NCBI GenBank assembly: GCA_019636755.1
Contig: JAHBWZ010000003.1
Location: 1-64,000, forward strand
Direction: 5' to 3'
Source: Phycisphaeraceae bacterium
GTDB lineage: Bacteria; Planctomycetota; Phycisphaerae; Phycisphaerales; SM1A02
Length of the DNA stretch: 64,000 bases
Each line of letters starts with the position of its first letter. The stretch's first letter is position 1. The notes under the pieces are model-generated. The model made no database searches. It had not been told where the DNA came from and saw nothing but the letters and a program-made list of their open reading frames with translations. Positions 1 to 35,185 of this stretch are shown here, one piece after another. The translations under genes were made by a program, and so were the position numbers.

Positions 1-120
1 ATGCGGGCCGTACGCGTCATCCACCCACTTCTGGCGGACGACCCGCCCGAAGCGGTCGTAGCCGGCATAGGCGCCGGCGGTCGAACGGCCGTTGTCCTGG
101 AAGGAGACCCGTACGACGGC
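1..120 (-). pseudogene. 5'-truncated RHS/YD-repeat protein fragment, runs off left edge
   Basis: The minus strand reads 40 codons open to the window edge. They include a typical YD repeat, AGYDRFGRVVRQKW, at about residues 19-32. RHS proteins are large surface or secreted polymorphic-toxin carriers built from such repeats. Reading upstream on the same strand, the frame is closed at once by two stop codons (TGA at 121-123 and another 6 bases further), and there is no start. I therefore read it as a fragment whose 5' part is missing. What lies upstream is the first copy of a repeat module that also precedes the second RHS fragment at 2329-3420. The rest of this gene lies outside the window. Confidence 0.6.
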
Positions 121-171
121 TCATGGTCACTCATGGCCAGACGCCCTGTGCTGCGTCCAGTCGGAACGAGT

Positions 172-830
172 GACGCACTCGAGGATCGCGGAACTGCTGT
201 CGCCCGGCTTGCTCGCGCGGTGCCACCGGATCATGACGGCCGAACGCACCCCAATGGGGGCTCCGCCCCCCTTGAACCACCCTGGCGGAGTGGCGCACGC
301 CGTGGAGTCCCGGATCGGGGTGCCTGCGGCCAGCGGACCCGGCTGTGCGCCTGAATGCGGCTTGCTCGCGCTCGACGCGCTGCCGGTATGCCTGTTCTTG
401 ACCCATGGTCCGTGGCATCTGCATGTGCCGGAGTCCTGCCGTAACGGGCACGCTCGTCGTGTCCGACGTGGTCGTTGCCGTGCAGGATACCTGGTCGGGT
501 GCGTGTTGACACCACGTCGTGCTGAATCGCAGCAGGGTCCGTGGGCATGATGAACGCGACCGGTCGCACCAGCAGCGCTGGGCAGAGCGCCCGCCTGTCA
601 CCCGGTGACCTTGCCATCGCAAGGGGGGCTCAAGGGGGGCGGAGCCCCCATTGGGGTGCGTCAGATGAGCACGCCGCGCCGGATCGCGCGTGATCGAGTC
701 AACGTGAGACGCGAACGGAGTGCGAGGCCGACAATGGCGCGTCTTCGCCACGGCCGCGGGCTGGTCGGAACGACTTGGGTTCTCAGACTCGGACTCCGGA
801 GGTGCGCTGACACAGAACGACTCGGACTCT
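172..830. repeat. RHS-linked repeat module, copy 1
   Basis: About 650 bases align along their whole length, with moderate divergence, to 3393-4035 in the same orientation. Long shared strings include ggcgcacgccgtggagtccc and gtcacccggtgaccttgcca. Inside lies an imperfect inverted repeat: GCACCCCAATGGGGGCTCCG at 245-264, and its complement ending near 659. Each arm is itself a hairpin (GGGGGC-TCC-GCCCCC). Both strands are broken up into short frames with no recognisable protein, so I call it non-coding. Both copies sit immediately 5' of an RHS fragment on the minus strand, which suggests they belong to a duplicated cassette. No transposase is encoded. Confidence 0.7.
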
Positions 831-976
831 CGGAGCTGAGTTCTGCTGGGTGCGCTGACACCCGACCAGCAGGACGGTCACGACACTGCGGTCGCGTGAA
901 GACAACGCGCGTCCTATCCTGGGAACTGGATCCGCGGCGCATCCGCGCAACTCGGGACCTGAGCCTCCGTCTGCGA

Positions 977-2332
977 TCACGCGGTCAAGCGCCGCCTCGC
1001 CCCTGGTGCTGGCCGTCCGCATTCGGAACACACATCGCCTCGCCCGGCCGGATAGCCGCAGAACAGGCACTCGCCGCGGGCCAGGCGATGTCGTCGCCGT
1101 CTCCAGAAGAGCAGGTACATCACAAGTCCTGGACCGGTTGCGAAGACAAGCCAGTTGCCCATGAACCCGATGGGGAGCGGTCGAAGCGGAAGAGCGGCGT
1201 GGCCGGGACACGATGCGGAACCGGCAGTTGTCATCCCGCGACGCCACGACAGACCCCACCGCAGTTCATAGACCAGAGTGTCGGAGTCGACCTCACCGGA
1301 AACGAGAACCGTAGCGAGCGCACGAAACGGCCATCCCCAGGCTCGCACGATAACCTGCTCTCCGGGGCGGGCCGTCCGTGCGGCGAGTGTCCCTGCGGCC
1401 CTCATGCTCCATGGCAACGACGTCCCGATTTCGGGCGCGGGCCCGGAAGTGAACCCTGGAGGTGCATCCAGGTACTGGCAGTATGTCTCCACGGCGGATT
1501 CTGCAAAGAGGACCTGCCGCAATTCGAGTGGCTGCCGGGCGCTGCGTGAGAGCGCCGCGGTCTCTACCAGCCTGTATCCACCGGGTCTGGTTGTGCTGAG
1601 CACGGCCGGAATCCACGCGCTGAGCAGGGTGACGAGCACCGTCAGCATGACGTACTTTACGACGTTCCAGACACGGCCGCGCCATGTCATGTCGACATGG
1701 AGCATCGACCCGATCGCGGCGCGCGTTCCGGCGATCACCACGCACCAGATCGCCCAGCTCGCCAGGAACGGGAGAACGAGGATCCTGGCGCCAAGGACTC
1801 TGCAGGGCAGATGACGCCCGTCTGCCGACACTTGTCCATGCTGCCCGACGATCCAGCCTGCGCCGACTACCTGGAGCACCGCCTGATCGCGATCATCATC
1901 GGCGATCCATGTGCCTCGAAGAAACGGGAACGGAACGCCGAAGGAGTCTGTCGTGCTGACATAGAGGCCGACAGGCGGTCTGGATTGCATGAACAGCCGG
2001 AGGTCACGGATCTCTGAAGCAGCATCGCGCAACATCTCCTCCCCAGCCGCTCGTTCACCGCGTGGATCGACATCGGTACGATCCCGATCGATCAGCCTGC
2101 CGGCACGCGCGACGGCCACCTCGATCCGACGATGGCCGAGGCGCTCATACTCGATCACGCCCGCATCCCAGGCCGAATCAAGCATGAAGCGATCGTCTCG
2201 CACCGTCTCGCAGTCGAGCGAGACCGGGCGCAGGGCAATCGCGACCGCAGCCGAAAGACTGAGCAAGAGTCCGATCCCGGCTGTCACCGCCAGCCGAACG
2301 AGACGATGCCGATGTCGCTGATGGCGACTCAT
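977..2332 (-). CDS. membrane protein with C-terminal zinc ribbon, coupled to RHS fragment
   Basis: This 451-residue protein has an N-terminal transmembrane segment at about residues 10-35 (rich in A, L and I) and further hydrophobic segments near residues 185-205, 235-260 and 395-415. After the last segment a short basic tail carries CLFCGYPAGRGDVCSECG. This is a CxxC...CxxC ribbon, common at the end of planctomycete membrane proteins of unknown function. The start at 2332 is chosen because its ATG overlaps the stop of the upstream RHS fragment as ATGA, which implies translational coupling. I do not recognise the family. Its position directly behind a variable RHS C-terminus is where an immunity protein would lie, but 451 residues is large for one, so that role is only a hypothesis. 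Confidence 0.7.
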   Translation of the reverse strand: MSRHQRHRHRLVRLAVTAGIGLLLSLSAAVAIALRPVSLDCETVRDDRFMLDSAWDAGVIEYERLGHRRIEVAVARAGRLIDRDRTDVDPRGERAAGEEMLRDAASEIRDLRLFMQSRPPVGLYVSTTDSFGVPFPFLRGTWIADDDRDQAVLQVVGAGWIVGQHGQVSADGRHLPCRVLGARILVLPFLASWAIWCVVIAGTRAAIGSMLHVDMTWRGRVWNVVKYVMLTVLVTLLSAWIPAVLSTTRPGGYRLVETAALSRSARQPLELRQVLFAESAVETYCQYLDAPPGFTSGPAPEIGTSLPWSMRAAGTLAARTARPGEQVIVRAWGWPFRALATVLVSGEVDSDTLVYELRWGLSWRRGMTTAGSASCPGHAALPLRPLPIGFMGNWLVFATGPGLVMYLLFWRRRRHRLARGECLFCGYPAGRGDVCSECGRPAPGARRRLTA

Positions 2333-3420
2333 GGAACACACAGCACATTGCGGTCTTCCGAGCACGGGCACCCGAAGTTGACGACCAGGTGATGTACAGC
2401 GGTGTCGAGTGGCTTGGCTTCGAGCAGCCAGGACGGCGCTCGACGCACGGCCCGAAGGCCCCCGGATCCAAGACGAGCATTGCAGCCTCCGAGTATCGTC
2501 ATTTTCACCCGCCGCCAGTCTCTCAGAGGATCGCGACCACTTCTGCGCGCTGCACGGCGCAGCTCATTGCTGCAGAACAGATACGCCGTTCCTCTGGCAT
2601 CCATGTCACCGCACTGCCGCTCTCCGCCGAGAGCAGCGATCCGGAAGTGGTCGATCTTGCCTTGAGGCCACTCCTCCCAATACTCAGCGTAGCCTGGGAC
2701 CTTCTCAAAGCGGCAACATCCACCGATACATCTACCACAGCGGAAGCTCACCTCAATGTGCTGGATGACGATCGGATCGCCGCAATCAGGCGGCAACGGG
2801 CCGACAACATGCCAGTCCCATGTGCACTCCACAGTGCAGCCCGACCATGATGGATTTGTCAGACCTGCACGCAGCTTGAGGACCGCATCGCCAAATGGAT
2901 CTGCATGCGCCAGTGGCGTCCCGGCTCCATACTCATACCCACCCATCCCATCCACATACCCCAACGGATCCCGCGACGTCCACCGCCCCAACCCCACGTC
3001 ATACACCCGGAACCGCACGCAGTAGAACCCCGTCTCCGGGATGAACACATACCCGCACCACCCGATGATCGAATCCGGCCCGGTGCCGCTGCTGCGATCA
3101 CTGATCTCGCCAGGCGCCAGCGCGCTCTTCGCCGATCCAAGCGCTGACACATCCGCGGAACTGATCACGCCGTCGCGGTTGATGTCCGCCTCGGCGCGGT
3201 ACTCAGCGTCGGTGATGGACACGGGGCCGGTGCCCGACAACGCCAGGATCGTCTGGATGATCCCGCGATCGCTGTCGGTGCCGGATGTCGTGATCGCGCC
3301 GTCGCCGTCGACGTCACTTGCGACGGTATGGCCCAAGTGGTGGCGGGCGCTGTCACGTGCGCCGTCTGCAGCTTCTGCCCGGATCGGGTCACGCGCTTCA
3401 CGATCGCGCCACTGTGTGCG
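2329..3420 (-). pseudogene. orphan RHS C-terminal cassette (dockerin-like pair, RHS core, variable tail)
   Basis: The minus strand is open and clearly protein-like from about 3318 to the stop at 2329. In order it shows a pair of calcium-loop motifs, DVDGDGAITTSGTDSDRG and DINRDGVISSADVSALGS; then the RHS core hallmark, VYDVGLGRWTSRDPLGYVDG; then a Cys-rich variable tail of about 170 residues that I cannot assign. RHS proteins usually run well over 1000 residues. Here the sequence upstream of the dockerin-like motif loses RHS character and merges into the repeat module at 3393-4035. No start codon with a ribosome site is visible. I therefore call it a displaced C-terminal cassette, either non-functional alone or a donor for recombination with a full RHS gene. 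It is coupled by ATGA to the membrane protein at 977-2332. Confidence 0.65.
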
Positions 3421-4035
3421 CCCGGCCTGCTCGCATGGTGCCACCGGATCGCGACGGCTCATCGCACCCCAATGGGGGCTCCGCCCCCCTTGAACCCCCC
3501 TCGGGGAGTGGCGCACGCCGTGGAGTCCCGGATCGGGGTGCCTGCGGCCAGCGGACCCGGCTGTGCGCGATCGCTCGACCCGATCAAGCACGCCGCGCTG
3601 CCAGTATGCCTGCTGTCGACCGATGGTGGTCCGTGGCATGTGCATCTGCCAGAGTCCCGCCGTGGAGGGCACGCTCGTCGTGCCCGACGTGGTGCACTTC
3701 GTCGTGCAGGATACCCGGCCGGGCGCCTGTTTACACCGGGTCATTCTGATTCGCAGCAGAATCCGTGGGTATGAGGCACGCGCCCGGTCGCACGAGCGGC
3801 GCAGGGCAGGGCGCCCGCCGGTCACCCGGTGACCTTGCCATCACAAGGGGGGGTTCAAGGGGGGCGGAGCCCCCATTGGGGTGCGCCAGGTGAGCGCTCC
3901 GCGCCGGATCGCGCTTGACCGGATCAAGGTGAGCCGCGAATGGAGTGCGAGGCCGACAGTCGCTCGTCTTCGCCACGGGCGCGAGCTCCACCAAACGACC
4001 TGGGTTCACAGACTCAGACTTCGCGGCTGCGCTGA
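3393..4035. repeat. RHS-linked repeat module, copy 2
   Basis: This is the second copy of the 172-830 module, in direct orientation. It has the same pair of inverted arms, at about 3464-3500 and 3846-3884; the right arm reads GGGGTTCAAGGGGGGCGGAG and onward. Homology continues past the right arm to a shared end near ...GCTGCGCTGACA. No convincing gene lies inside. The arms resemble the hairpins in the repeat tracts at 22.2-23.1 and 30.7-31.2 kb in layout: a G run, then G6C-nnn-GC5, then a C run on the complement. One family may underlie all of them. Confidence 0.7.
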
Positions 4036-4478
4036 CAGCGGCGTCATCGAGCCAGGCGCGCAGCCGTCACCTGCTTGCAATGCCATACGTCATCGTCGAT
4101 CGCGTCCAGCCGAAGATCGACGACTGTTGACTCGAGACACACGGACTCGACACATTGCGATGGAGCGGAACCACGGACCGGGGCCGCCATCGTTCCATGA
4201 AACAGGAGCGACGGGCTGCATGCATGCGAATCCGCTTCTGGCCAGCGGACCGGAGCCGACACAGGCACGAAGAACGCGAATCTGTGCGGGCTCGCCTTCA
4301 ATGGCCGGCGCGCCTCAGTCTCATTGACACGTTCCACGGGCTGACCATGAGCGGGTCCGGGCAGGTGCAGGTCCCGTTGTCCAGCATGGCGCTCCCGCGC
4401 GACGACAGTGCACGGTCGGCCGCCGGCCGGGACGCCGTTCTGCACGTCGATCGCCCGATGCCGGCGCCGGCGGCGGAC
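4036..4478. other. intergenic stretch without a supported gene
   Basis: About 440 bases lie between the repeat module and the stop of the DUF1080 gene. Short open frames exist on both strands but show no domain, no ribosome site and no protein-like composition. I see no tRNA, strong hairpin or promoter. Confidence 0.5.
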
Positions 4479-5291
4479 TTACGACGGGTCGTCGGGCAGG
4501 GGGCGCACCCAGATGTTCCGGAAGTGGATCGGGTCGCCGTGGTCCTGGAGCCGGATGGGGCCGCTGGGTGCGTGGGGCCGGTAGGACGCGCGCTGTCCGT
4601 GCGTGGTGATGCCGTGCATCTCCGCGCGTTCATGCACGAGCACGCCGTTCATGAGCATCGTGACCGTCGCCCGCCGGCGGAGCGTGCCGTCGTCGTTGAA
4701 GCGCGGCCCTCGGAAGATGATGTCGTATGTGTTCCACTGTCCTTGCTGGCGGCAGGCATTCACCAGCGGCGGGTGCTGGCCGTAGAGCGCGCCGGCCATG
4801 CCGTCGGGATAGGTGAGATTCCCGTGCGACTGGAGCACCTGAACCTCGTAGCGATCCAGGAAGAACACGCCGCTGTTGCCGCCGGACTGGCCGCGGACCT
4901 CCCGTCCCTCGGGGATCATCCACTCGATGTGGAACTGGCAGTCCCCGAAGTGGTCGCGCGTCCGCAGGTCGCCGCTTCCCGGTTCGACGACGAACGCGGT
5001 CCCCTCGTCCACCAGTCGCCAGCGCGGCGCGGCACCGTCTCCGTGCGCCCACGCGTCCAGGGATCCCGTTCCAAAGAGCACGACGGCATCGCCCGGCGCC
5101 TCGCCGCACTGACCGGTGGTCACCGTGATCGGCTGCGGCCGGTCCATGTCGTGGACCGCGTAGCGGTGCGCGCGGGTGCCGGTGTTCTGGACCGGGTCGA
5201 CCCGCACGGCCGGTCGCGCAGCGGCGCCGACGGCCAGGAGAGTCGCGAGCGCCGCGGCGGATGCGAGCGGCAGCGGGGCGATGATGGTCAT
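4479..5291 (-). CDS. secreted DUF1080 / 3-keto-disaccharide hydrolase family protein
   Basis: This 270-residue protein starts MTIIAPLPLASAAALATLLA, an export signal ending near ARP. It continues with a single DUF1080 beta-sandwich: a VLFGTGSLDAW start, DCQFHIEWMIPEG, the family hallmark GGNSGVFFLDRYEVQVLQS, GQWNTYDIIFRGPRF and VTMLMNGVLVHE. Members bind or hydrolyse glycosides in the periplasm or outside the cell. Some are 3-keto-glycoside hydrolases, and many in planctomycetes are uncharacterised. The ATG at 5291 is chosen because an AGGAG motif lies 6-9 bases upstream and the signal peptide begins there. The longer frame upstream has no protein-like sequence. It follows mqnE on the same strand with a 70-base gap, so they may share a transcript. 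The exact substrate cannot be read from the sequence. Confidence 0.85.
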   Translation of the reverse strand: MTIIAPLPLASAAALATLLAVGAAARPAVRVDPVQNTGTRAHRYAVHDMDRPQPITVTTGQCGEAPGDAVVLFGTGSLDAWAHGDGAAPRWRLVDEGTAFVVEPGSGDLRTRDHFGDCQFHIEWMIPEGREVRGQSGGNSGVFFLDRYEVQVLQSHGNLTYPDGMAGALYGQHPPLVNACRQQGQWNTYDIIFRGPRFNDDGTLRRRATVTMLMNGVLVHERAEMHGITTHGQRASYRPHAPSGPIRLQDHGDPIHFRNIWVRPLPDDPS

Positions 5292-22259: not shown

Positions 22260-23130
22260 CCGATGCGTGTGCGTGCGCGCGCTCGATGTCATTCGGAGAC
22301 CACCGCAGGGCCTGTGGATGACCTCGGTCTCCTTGAGCATGTCGGTCTTCCGTACGGGTGCGCGAGCGCAGGGGGGCTGAGCCCCCCCTGCAACCCCCTT
22401 GCGCGCAGGAGGGTGGTGGTGGTCGGCCGGCGCGCGAGTGGTGGAATCTGCGCGCATGGGGTCCAGCGTCGTGCGCTGAGGTCCTCTGGCGGCACGGCGC
22501 GTCCGTGATCGATGCATTGCGCGAGAAGGCGCCTCCGGGATCATCCATCCGCGAGGGGGGGGTTGCAGGGGGGCGCTTCAGCCCCCCTGCGCTTGCGCGT
22601 CCAGGAAGCGCGAACACTCGCGGCGCAATGCTCTGGTGCATCGTCGAGGTCATTGACTCGTTCATGCGTGCGGGCGCGCGCGTGCTCGCTCGCTCGAGGT
22701 CACTTCGGGGACCACGGTTGGCGTCGGGTCTCCCTGGATCCTGCAGATCTTCGTTGGACTGCGCGAGCGCAGGGGGGGCTGAGGCCCCCCCTGCAACCCC
22801 CTTGCGCGCAGGAGGGTGGTCGTGGTCAGCCGGCGCGCGAGTGGTGGCAGCGGCGCGCATCGGGTCCGGGGTTGCGCGGTCAGGACCTCTGCCGACGACG
22901 GCGCGTCCGGCGCGGCGCGTCCGCGTTCGATGATTCGCGAGCCAGGGCGCTCCCGCCGTCGTCCATTCGCCGGGGGGGTTGCAGGGGGGCGCTTCAGCCC
23001 CCCTGCGCTCGCGCGTGCCGAAAGCGATGGCGTGCATGGCGCCATGCCCAGGTGCATTGTCAGGATTGCTGACTCGTGCATGCGCGGGCGCGCGCTTGAT
23101 CGCTCGATCTCTCTCACAGCGTCCACGCGT
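22260..23130. repeat. tandem hairpin-bounded repeat units (two full, one partial)
   Basis: Two ~400-base units run in tandem, about 22260-22665 and 22666-23070, with the start of a third. Each has hairpin A (CAGGGGGGCTGAGCCCCCC type, 22369-22390 and 22769-22794), a conserved ~190-base interior (shared gtcagccggcgcgcgagtgg or close), hairpin B (GCAGGGGGGCGCTTCAGCCC, 22565-22590 and 22981-23006), then a ~170-base tail ending in gactcgttcatgcgtgcggg or close. A and B are roughly inverted relative to each other. The strands carry only short or low-complexity frames. A reverse-orientation relative lies at 30740-31245. The stretch 22190-22260 and 23130-23357 holds no supported gene. Confidence 0.75.
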
Positions 23131-30739: not shown

Positions 30740-31245
30740 TGCAGGCCGATGGTCGGCGCGTGGCGTGATCTCTGGCGCGCCCTGGCTCGCGATCATCGAT
30801 CGCGGACGCGCCGGGTCGGACGTGCCTTCGTCGGCAGACGTCCTCGGCGCGCCGCTATGCGCGCAGACACCACCACTCGCGCGCCGGCTGAGCCCGACCA
30901 GCTTCATGCGCGCAAGGGGATTGCAGGGGGGGCCTCAGCCCCCCATGTGCTCGCGCACCTGTACGGGAAACATCGTGCTCGCGGACACGCGATGTCAGCC
31001 GTATGCCTTGAAAGAAATCGAACGAGCGCGAGCGCGCATGCACGAGTCAGCGACGTGGATGATGCATCAGGGCACTCCGTCGTGCGCGCCATCGAATTCT
31101 GCACGCGCCTGCGCAGGGGGGGCTGAAGCGCCCCCCTTGCAACCCCCCCGGCGGATGGACGGTTCCGGGCGCGGCCTGGCTCGCGGATCATCGATCGCGG
31201 ACGCGCCGGCTGACCACCACCCACCCTCGTGAGCGCAAGTGGGTT
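30740..31245. repeat. hairpin-bounded repeat unit, inverted copy
   Basis: The reverse complement of this stretch aligns with the unit at 22.7-23.1 kb: hairpin at 31112-31140, a tail with a stretch close to gctgactcgtgcatgcgcgc, hairpin at 30923-30947, then an interior with cagccggcgcgcgagtggtg. A second partial interior lies at about 31160-31245. No gene is supported from 30684 to 31482. A somewhat AT-richer part at 31310-31395 precedes the secreted gene at 31.5 kb. Confidence 0.7.
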
Positions 31246-31463
31246 GCCAGGACGCCAGCCCCCATGGGCCTGCGTCGTCAACAGCCCGGTCTGCCCGCAC
31301 GAAAGCCGGAGGACCCGAAAGAATTTCTGATTCCCCGCCAACGGCCGCAGGATCCCGTGCAGGATGGCGTACCTGAAGAAGAAGAGGACGGCCCGGCCCG
31401 GCTCGCGCCTCCCGCCCTCGTTCACTGGATCCGCCGTTTCCGTCCATGACACCAGACCTCACG

Positions 31464-34851: not shown

Positions 34852-35185
34852 ATGTCGGGAAGGGCCCTGATCGTCACGATCACCCCGCCTCCGGCGCCTG
34901 CGCCCCGCGGCACGTCATGCTGCGGATGCGCAGGCGCCGGGATGGCGGGGTGGCGGAGGCGACGATCCGCCGGCGCGAACGCGACGGAAACCGCGCTTCC
35001 GCCAGGGGGGTTCACGGGGGGCGTGCCCATGGGCGTGCGCGATCAGGTCGCGCAGACGTCCGTGTCGTCCCTGGACGAATGGCACCGGCAGAGGCATGTC
35101 CCGGTCCGCCGTCTCCTGTCCCGGGCCCGCCGCCAGGGCTCCCTCGAGCCGGACCGTCGGGTCGCCTGTGGGTGCGGCTCGCCGC
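34852..35185. other. intergenic stretch with a lone copy of the hairpin motif
   Basis: At 35001-35038 the sequence CCAGGGGGGTTCACGGGGGG and the following CGTGCCCATGGGCGTGC match the layout of the right arm in the RHS-linked modules (G run, TTCA, G run, hairpin). Otherwise no gene is supported. Confidence 0.45.

What the first reader, a model, noticed from the sequence alone, without database searches (positions are those of the whole stretch)
1..4035. Duplicated RHS cassettes behind a conserved ~0.65 kb repeat
Both RHS fragments lack their 5' part and both are preceded on their strand by the same repeat module. This is the pattern of displaced RHS C-terminal cassettes, but with an unusual conserved spacer that has inverted arms and may act as a recombination or exchange unit.
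Basis: partly seen in the sequence, partly recalled or inferred. Interest (0 to 1): 0.6.

Follow-up and report, generated by a model that had tools for sequence, protein, structure and literature searches.

The report
IS-derived spacer capping orphan RHS cassettes
In this bacterium, broken-off tail pieces of large RHS genes lie in a row, several of them behind copies of a non-coding spacer that carries one end of an old jumping gene and two hairpin repeats found widely in the genome; it looks like a local variant of the known RHS tail reserve rather than a new kind of system.

Summary
Two 5'-truncated RHS fragments (- strand) each lie behind a 0.69-kb repeat (A ~126-812, B 3351-4037, 83% identical) with 38-nt inverted arms. 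The window starts at a contig end. A third full copy and a half copy sit in the same RHS array on contig C1; 60 relatives gave no copy. The right-hand fragment is a displaced RHS C-terminal cassette; the left one is a mid-core stub cut by the contig end.

New here: (1) the module's 5' end resembles an IS21-family left end (istA remnant in the array; intact istA-istB element in a relative). (2) Such ends open four units of the array and close its far end, all on one strand, with no right end found. (3) The module evolves like non-coding DNA while the RHS tail beside it is under purifying selection. (4) The arms belong to a genome-wide hairpin family, mostly away from RHS, whose flanks switch partners at the hairpin.

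Best reading: a degenerate IS21-derived, hairpin-bearing spacer caps displaced RHS tails; copies spread by duplication and recombination, and the tails stay useful. Site-specific cassette exchange is possible but unproven. New variant of a known kind.

The parts
1..120 (-). Mid-core fragment of an RHS gene, cut by the contig start; 5' side ends near module A
   Evidence: C14:2-99 homologous to C1:729514-729611 (93.9%); peptide 97% identical over 33 aa; the stretch 100-120 is assigned by eye
126..812 (-). Module A: non-coding repeat; - strand 5' end at 812 is the IS21-type end, 3' end abuts RHS (left border approximate)
   Evidence: 83% identical to module B
245..282 (+). Hairpin arm, left, module A
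623..660 (-). Hairpin arm, right, module A
746..812 (-). IS21-type left terminal sequence of module A; the 12-mer TGTCAGCGCACC at 801-812 is repeated at 849-860
   Evidence: 0 of 5000 random window segments scored as high against an intact IS21 left end
977..2371 (-). ORF downstream of cassette B (464 aa), membrane-protein-like by eye, with C-terminal CxxC/CxEC ribbon; candidate partner or immunity gene
   Evidence: no family hit in NCBIfam, only a weak Pfam match below cut-off (5TM-5TMR_LYT, E 0.063)
2329..2889 (-). Variable C-terminal region of RHS cassette B
   Evidence: Homology to other copies ends at 2927-2928; no family hit for this part
2890..3078 (-). RHS repeat-associated core of cassette B
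   Evidence: TIGR03696, 51.5 bits and 48.1 bits
3109..3348 (-). Dockerin-like insert in RHS cassette B, under purifying selection together with the core
   Evidence: Dockerin_1 E 1.8e-4, 22.1 bits, just below the 22.9 cut-off
3351..4037 (-). Module B
3463..3500 (+). Hairpin arm, left, module B
3848..3885 (-). Hairpin arm, right, module B (100% complementary to left arm)
3971..4037 (-). IS21-type left terminal sequence of module B; right edge of the array
   Evidence: (4 of 5000 random segments as high)

Best explanation
The locus is the 5' edge of a row of displaced (orphan) RHS cassettes. Units have a 5'-truncated piece of RHS core with a dockerin-like insert, a variable C-terminal end, and often a small gene behind it that looks membrane-bound. 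The repeat before the two fragments is a non-coding composite spacer: the left end of a dead IS21-family insertion sequence, flank, an inverted pair of genome-wide hairpin repeats around a ~340-nt centre, and a short flank joined directly to RHS code. It most likely arose when an IS21-type element and hairpin elements landed in the array and cut RHS copies. Copies then multiplied by duplication and recombination of whole units between the direct repeats they provide, with the hairpins as frequent breakpoints. The tails are still used, as recombination donors for an RHS gene or expressed in place. Shown: anatomy, IS21-type end, non-coding pattern of the module, hairpin family with switching flanks, purifying selection on the tails. 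Inferred: order of events, recombination as the copying route, what the tails do.
For: Array and copies. IS21 end: modules A, B, C, D align to the sequence upstream of the istA remnant (scores 76, 64, 50, 65; no random control for these); A, D and B also align above nearly all random segments to the left end of an intact element in relative G019, whose two genes are an IS21 transposase (194.8 bits, cut-off 160) and IstB (250.2 bits, cut-off 200). Using A's end as probe, matches in the window and the C1 stretch are A itself, B, C, D and the remnant, all on the - strand. Non-coding: pN/pS 0.71-1.33 in all six frames for three pairs. Selected tails: B-C 8 nonsynonymous and 15 synonymous differences in 139 codons, one-sided P 5.6e-5, with pS 0.144 close to the module's B-C divergence, 93/679 = 0.137. 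Two different RHS breakpoints at the same module border (A mid-core, B/C dockerin edge). Hairpins as junctions: baseline; half-modules that stop at the arm: D and C15.
Against: No target-site duplication: the 5 bases outside the two ends differ in B and in C, so neither is a clean IS21 insertion. No IS21 right end was found; the module's RHS-side end shares TGTCA with it but does not match the relative's right end at that border. Module C scores at background against the relative's IS21 left end (1847 of 5000 random segments as high), and with a 50-nt probe of that end only the remnant, none of the four modules, passes the threshold. No RHS gene of this family (tail >=80% identical) with a full 5' end was found. 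The selection result assumes that B and C share one truncation event; conversion from a selected donor is an alternative. The 34-aa istA remnant alone hits no NCBIfam family and was not among the two matches of the IS21 model in the own genome.
Confidence: 0.6

Rival explanations
1. The module is a dedicated exchange unit: the hairpin arms are sites for a recombinase or RAYT-like nuclease that moves RHS tails (and other paralogous cassettes) between loci.
For: Flank families switch at hairpins: 20 pairs share the downstream but not the upstream family; two units are bracketed by direct repeats; half-modules end at the arm.
Against: Homologous or illegitimate recombination at any dispersed repeat leaves the same mosaic. 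The one Y1 transposase-type gene found (C17:82123, 27.9 bits) has no arm within the 3.2 kb seen around it (0 matches with up to 3 mismatches). 15 of 26 strong arms are not at RHS arrays.
Confidence: 0.12
2. The module is a leader that expresses the truncated cassettes: promoter or start signals from the IS21 end drive the RHS tail.
For: All five ends found face the same way, four of them into an RHS piece; in copy 3 the istA start codon, with AGGAGG before it, runs in frame into about 930 aa of RHS; the tails are under purifying selection.
Against: No sigma-70-like promoter in 1-4500 (0 found, 0.6 expected; other promoter types not covered); no reading frame in the module shows constraint; the frame open through A and C is broken in B.
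Confidence: 0.2
3. REPIN/BIME-like mobile hairpins are all there is; their presence in RHS arrays is incidental to the duplication of the array.
For: Inverted hairpin pairs about 155 nt apart at 4 loci (C12:284.9k, 457.6k, 525.8k, C4:2.2k) and alternating arrays of a second class.
Against: Does not explain the IS21-type end or the two RHS breakpoints at the same module border.
Confidence: 0.25
4. Assembly artefact at a repeat-rich contig end.
For: C14 starts in the repeat; C1 ends in a run of 56 C; C14:2 and C1:733120 are adjacent in RHS coordinates; contig C5 also ends in an RHS copy.
Against: Module copies differ by 14-17% and sit in distinct contexts; module B lies fully inside the contig with non-repeated sequence after it.
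Confidence: 0.05

Closest known systems
Orphan rhs-CT/immunity pairs of Enterobacteriaceae (PMC3967940, abstract and passages seen)
   Same: Displaced RHS fragments, 5' truncated, keeping a stretch of core then a variable C-terminal end and a small downstream gene; reached by homologous recombination with the main gene
   Different: Here no main gene was found at the locus, the core holds a dockerin-like insert, and a non-coding IS21/hairpin module caps several units; toxin and immunity functions are untested
E. coli Rhs C-terminal tips with H-rpt (PMC3032704, passages seen)
   Same: RHS tips linked to an insertion-sequence-like repeat, no transposition shown
   Different: Different sequence source here: IS21-type left end plus hairpins, placed upstream of the tip
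IS21-family insertion sequences (PMC10122671, passages seen; element of G019)
   Same: Terminal TGTCA sequence and neighbouring bases; in module A a repeated 12-mer, reminiscent of the multiple end repeats of IS21
   Different: No right end, no 5-bp duplication, no istA/istB in the module
REP/BIME repeats and RAYTs (PMC2817692, abstract and passages seen)
   Same: Palindromes in inverted pairs and alternating arrays, many copies, not found in relatives searched
   Different: No cognate RAYT flanked by these hairpins was found; the REP 5' tag was not tested

Membership tests
Orphan RHS C-terminal cassettes | RHS core fragment followed by a non-conserved C-terminal end | tested here: met
   TIGR03696 hit; homology to sister copies ends at 2927-2928, within the last codons of the core. 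Met for cassette B; not for the fragment at 1-120
Orphan RHS C-terminal cassettes | Lacks the 5' part of the gene | tested here: met
   RHS homology stops at the module border in B and close to it in A
Orphan RHS C-terminal cassettes | Lies downstream of a full main rhs gene with matching core | tested here: not met
   No copy >=80% identical in the tail has a full 5' end; the 2668-aa RHS frame at C1:100 kb is 54% identical. The assembly is broken at the array, so absence is not final
Orphan RHS C-terminal cassettes | C-terminal end is a toxin with a cognate immunity gene | not testable with these tools
   No convincing family hit for the C-terminal ends or the next genes in Pfam or NCBIfam
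IS21-family element (or MITE of it) | IS21-type terminal sequence | tested here: met
   One end only; against the G019 left end, random segments scoring as high: A 0, D 1, B 4, C 1847 of 5000, so C meets it only through its homology to A, B and D
IS21-family element (or MITE of it) | Second, inverted end | tested here: not met
   No match to the G019 right end, or to an inverted own end, in the window or the C1 stretch; only TGTCA at the RHS-side border of B and C
IS21-family element (or MITE of it) | Target-site duplication of about 5 bp | tested here: not met
   B: GGCGC left, GCGGC right; C: GGCGC left, GTCTC right. A not testable, left border uncertain
REPIN/BIME | Palindromic repeat in inverted pairs, many copies | tested here: met
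   147 matches at E<=1, 26 of them >=55 bits, of which 24 trained the model; BLAST without a model also finds the dispersed arms
REPIN/BIME | Cognate RAYT gene flanked by the same repeat | tested here: not met
   One Y1_Tnp-type gene found, C17:82123; no arm in the 3.2 kb around it

The most novel reading that the evidence does not exclude
The hairpins are active junction sites: a genome-wide, lineage-specific set of palindromes at which a cellular enzyme joins and swaps flanking segments, so that RHS tails and other secreted paralogues are shuffled like cassettes, with IS21 left ends as fixed 5' caps that mark a unit.
Probability: 0.1. Interest if true: 0.75.

Novelty: new variant of a known kind. 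Interest (0 to 1): 0.42.

Why it matters
Orphan RHS tails are usually explained by recombination through the RHS core alone. Here an insertion-sequence end and hairpin repeats recur at breakpoints, the spacer drifts like neutral DNA, and the truncated tail beside it does not. That gives an internal clock for asking whether displaced RHS tails are kept by selection, and a testable place to look for tail turnover in a lineage where RHS tails of this type are frequent (41 of 151 genomes searched, the window's own included, have a match at E<=1e-8).

Tried and rejected
Protein-coding module: rejected; pN/pS is near 1 in all frames, although one - strand frame is open through A and C. Known RNA family: the two matches in 1-4500 are far below their gathering scores. 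Intrinsic terminators or sigma-70 promoters: no excess over shuffles (2 against 1.5, 0 against 0.6). Hairpin arms as strong RNA structures: the module B arms fold no better than shuffles (z -0.28 and -1.14), a C12 arm z -1.41, only the longer C20 palindrome stands out (z -5.29). Same module in relatives: none of 60; three of them gave weak hits of 32-41 nt. Arms in relatives: 0 of 40 at E<=1e-6 with strict filters; an exact 27-mer of the arm consensus had no match in genome contigs, where the window's own genome may be left out. Same module type behind displaced RHS tails elsewhere: I fetched 10 loci chosen for having two or more tails and self-compared all 10; I read the unit borders of four of them (L118, L122, L123, L124), and there, by eye, the repeats are RHS core; the other six were not read. 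RHS tail in genome contigs: one distant hit (46% identity). istA N-terminus in plasmids: no match. Intact IS21 in the own genome: two weak matches, none over the cut-off. Literature: a search for hairpin and 12-mer letters listed 10 papers, none holding the hairpin strings; wording with rhs, orphan and IS21 listed 8 papers, none holding IS21; Planctomycetes+dockerin+rhs listed one termite-gut paper. One search's B-C figure includes non-homologous C-terminal residues and is superseded. Ribbon-protein link downstream of RHS tails: seen several times, tested against no background beyond the window. A cloudier part of the hairpin test: among the 16 pairs with the same upstream but different downstream family, 5 of 8 in family U0 are only 60-67% identical next to the hairpin and two pairs are above 80% on the supposedly different side.
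Full report
Observation. The repeat, the inverted arms and the two RHS fragments are as described. Module B is 3351-4037 and module A ~126-812; BLAST aligns 651 bases at 83%. Window base 1 is base 1 of contig C14 in a 20-contig, 4.11-Mb assembly, so extension to the left is impossible in this assembly.

Copies. In the window's own genome the module has a third full copy, C (C1:723922-724601, 86%), and a half copy, D (C1:722074-722265, 84%). Of 60 relatives, none has it; three gave weak hits of 32-41 nt. The three full copies and D lie at RHS code seen at the right end of C1 (722-734.6 kb) and the left end of C14, which I treat as one array; that the two contigs adjoin is not shown.

The array. 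RHS tails with the dockerin-like insert occur four times on C1 (L032 8463-8921, 10780-11226, 13176-13625, 16818-17234), once in the window, and once at the right end of C5, all on the - strand. The RHS homology of the C1 and window copies stops at different points on the 5' side. C-terminal ends differ, apart from the C5 copy and C1 copy 2, which share one (88.7% over 1036 nt). C14:2-99 corresponds to C1:729514-729611, and C1 copy 4 stops at the point equivalent to C1:729512: the window's left fragment therefore reads as the 5' stub of an RHS copy whose rest was assembled elsewhere (C1 copy 4 or the C5 copy). Which of these it joins I cannot tell.

The module's ends. On the - strand module A starts TGTCAGCGCACC and B TGTCAGCGCAGC. 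A related sequence lies 151 nt before an istA-like N-terminus (C1:730317-730418) that runs in frame into RHS copy 3; modules A, B, C and D align to it with scores 76, 64, 50 and 65 (no random control). In relative G019 an intact element has an IS21 transposase (194.8 bits), an IstB helper (250.2 bits), a left end beginning TGTCACCGCACC 154 nt before istA and an inverted right end beginning TGTCA at 2636. Its left end aligns to the remnant (score 99) and to modules A (48), D (42) and B (39); 0, 0, 1 and 4 of 5000 random window segments score as high. Module C scores 23, which is background (1847 of 5000). With module A's own end as probe, the matches in the 64-kb window and the C1 stretch are A itself, B, C, D and the remnant, all on one strand; with 50-nt probes of the G019 ends only the remnant matches, and no right end appears. 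Four of the five ends open an RHS piece; D lies at the far, 3' end of the array. Genome-wide, a DNA search finds A, B, C, D, one more at C15:412292 and a chance-level 18-mer. At the RHS side the module begins TGTCAC exactly where RHS homology stops in B and C; A's border is less sharp. No 5-bp duplication is seen in B or C, so a simple insertion is not supported.

Neutral spacer, constrained tail. In all six frames and all three pairs the module shows pN/pS of 0.71-1.33. The RHS tails of B and C, which share the same module-RHS junction and a 4-residue insert, differ by 8 nonsynonymous and 15 synonymous changes in 139 codons (pN 0.026, pS 0.144, one-sided P 5.6e-5). The synonymous distance matches the module's own B-C divergence (93 of 679 sites, 13.7%). 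The simplest reading is that both diverged from one truncated ancestor and that the tail stayed under purifying selection. Conversion from a selected donor is a possible alternative.

The arms. The 38-nt arm belongs to a hairpin family in this genome. A model trained on 24 arms finds 147 matches at E<=1; 26 reach 55 bits, 24 of them the training arms. Of these 26, nine lie in the C1/C14 array, two in another RHS array (C12:525 kb) and 15 elsewhere, the nearest of these about 12 kb from RHS tails on C4. No match at E<=1e-6 in 40 relatives. For 34 arms with flanks, single-linkage clusters of upstream and downstream flanks mix: downstream family D0 occurs with upstream families U0, U4, U13 and U17, and U0 with D0, D3 and D15. 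I then profiled the 21 of 34 arms that belong to mixed or comparison clusters. In the 20 pairs with the same downstream but different upstream family, the first 40 nt downstream are 77-100% identical and the first 40 nt upstream 55-71%; random 40-nt pairs average 62.5%, 95th percentile 76%. The pairs are not independent, and a few bins further upstream reach 82-92%. The 16 same-upstream, different-downstream pairs show the switch clearly for the three that involve D, less so in family U0 (5 of 8 pairs at 60-67%; two pairs above 80% on the other side). D and the C15 copy are half-modules that stop at the arm. The hairpin is therefore a recurrent junction. Whether an enzyme acts there is not shown.

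Comparison. Displaced RHS tails are known in enterobacteria: orphan rhs-CT genes usually lack initiation signals and can be fused to the main gene by recombination (PMC3967940, abstract and passages), and E. coli C-terminal tips may carry an IS-like H-repeat without observed transposition (PMC3032704, passages). Orphan cdiA-CT genes may be interrupted by IS elements (PMC3150448, passages). IS21 ends have multiple direct repeats, insertions make 5-bp duplications, and IstA can use an isolated left end in vitro (PMC10122671, passages). In the four relatives' arrays whose unit borders I read, the bracketing repeats are RHS core, so the IS21-hairpin module looks like a peculiarity of this genome.

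Verdict. A real and slightly unusual arrangement: a new variant of displaced RHS cassettes, capped by a degenerate IS21-derived, hairpin-bearing spacer. The exchange-unit idea is open, not shown.

Noticed in passing
window 22546-23019, 31100-31280, 34996-35045; also C1:247108-248383 and C2:120017-121096: Many weaker hairpin-model matches, often in alternating orientation about 200 nt apart, like BIME arrays; at C12:459256 and C20:103762 the sequence is a second class (GAGCGCAGGGGGGCTG..GCGCCCCCCTGC). The window copies themselves were not read.
   Followed up: no
L032 12528-15419 (C1:727527-730418): An istA N-terminus (HTH_38 at 21.1 bits, below its cut-off; AGGAGG before its GTG) is fused in frame to about 930 aa of RHS: a transposase-RHS fusion ORF of 963 aa.
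   Followed up: partly
window 977-2371; L032 9627-10415; L115 5708 and 10061; L123 5086-5811: Several genes downstream of RHS tails end in a CxxC.Y...CxEC ribbon; the only such motif in the 64-kb window is the one behind cassette B.
   Followed up: partly
C1:733115; L033 7006, 7386, 7896, 11557, 14037; L040 2510: The 12-mer GGGACAGGCACT recurs close to hairpin arms and sits at the break in RHS copy 4.
   Followed up: no
C12:81-86 kb, 284-286 kb, 454-459 kb, 492-498 kb; C20:94-103 kb: Hairpin arms lie among families of secreted-looking paralogues (e.g. proteins with GTWVTDHYSHLGVTF), suggesting that the same repeats accompany other duplicated arrays (gene calls by a simple script).
   Followed up: partly
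C1:734560-734642: Contig C1 ends in a run of 56 C, probably a sequencing artefact.
   Followed up: no
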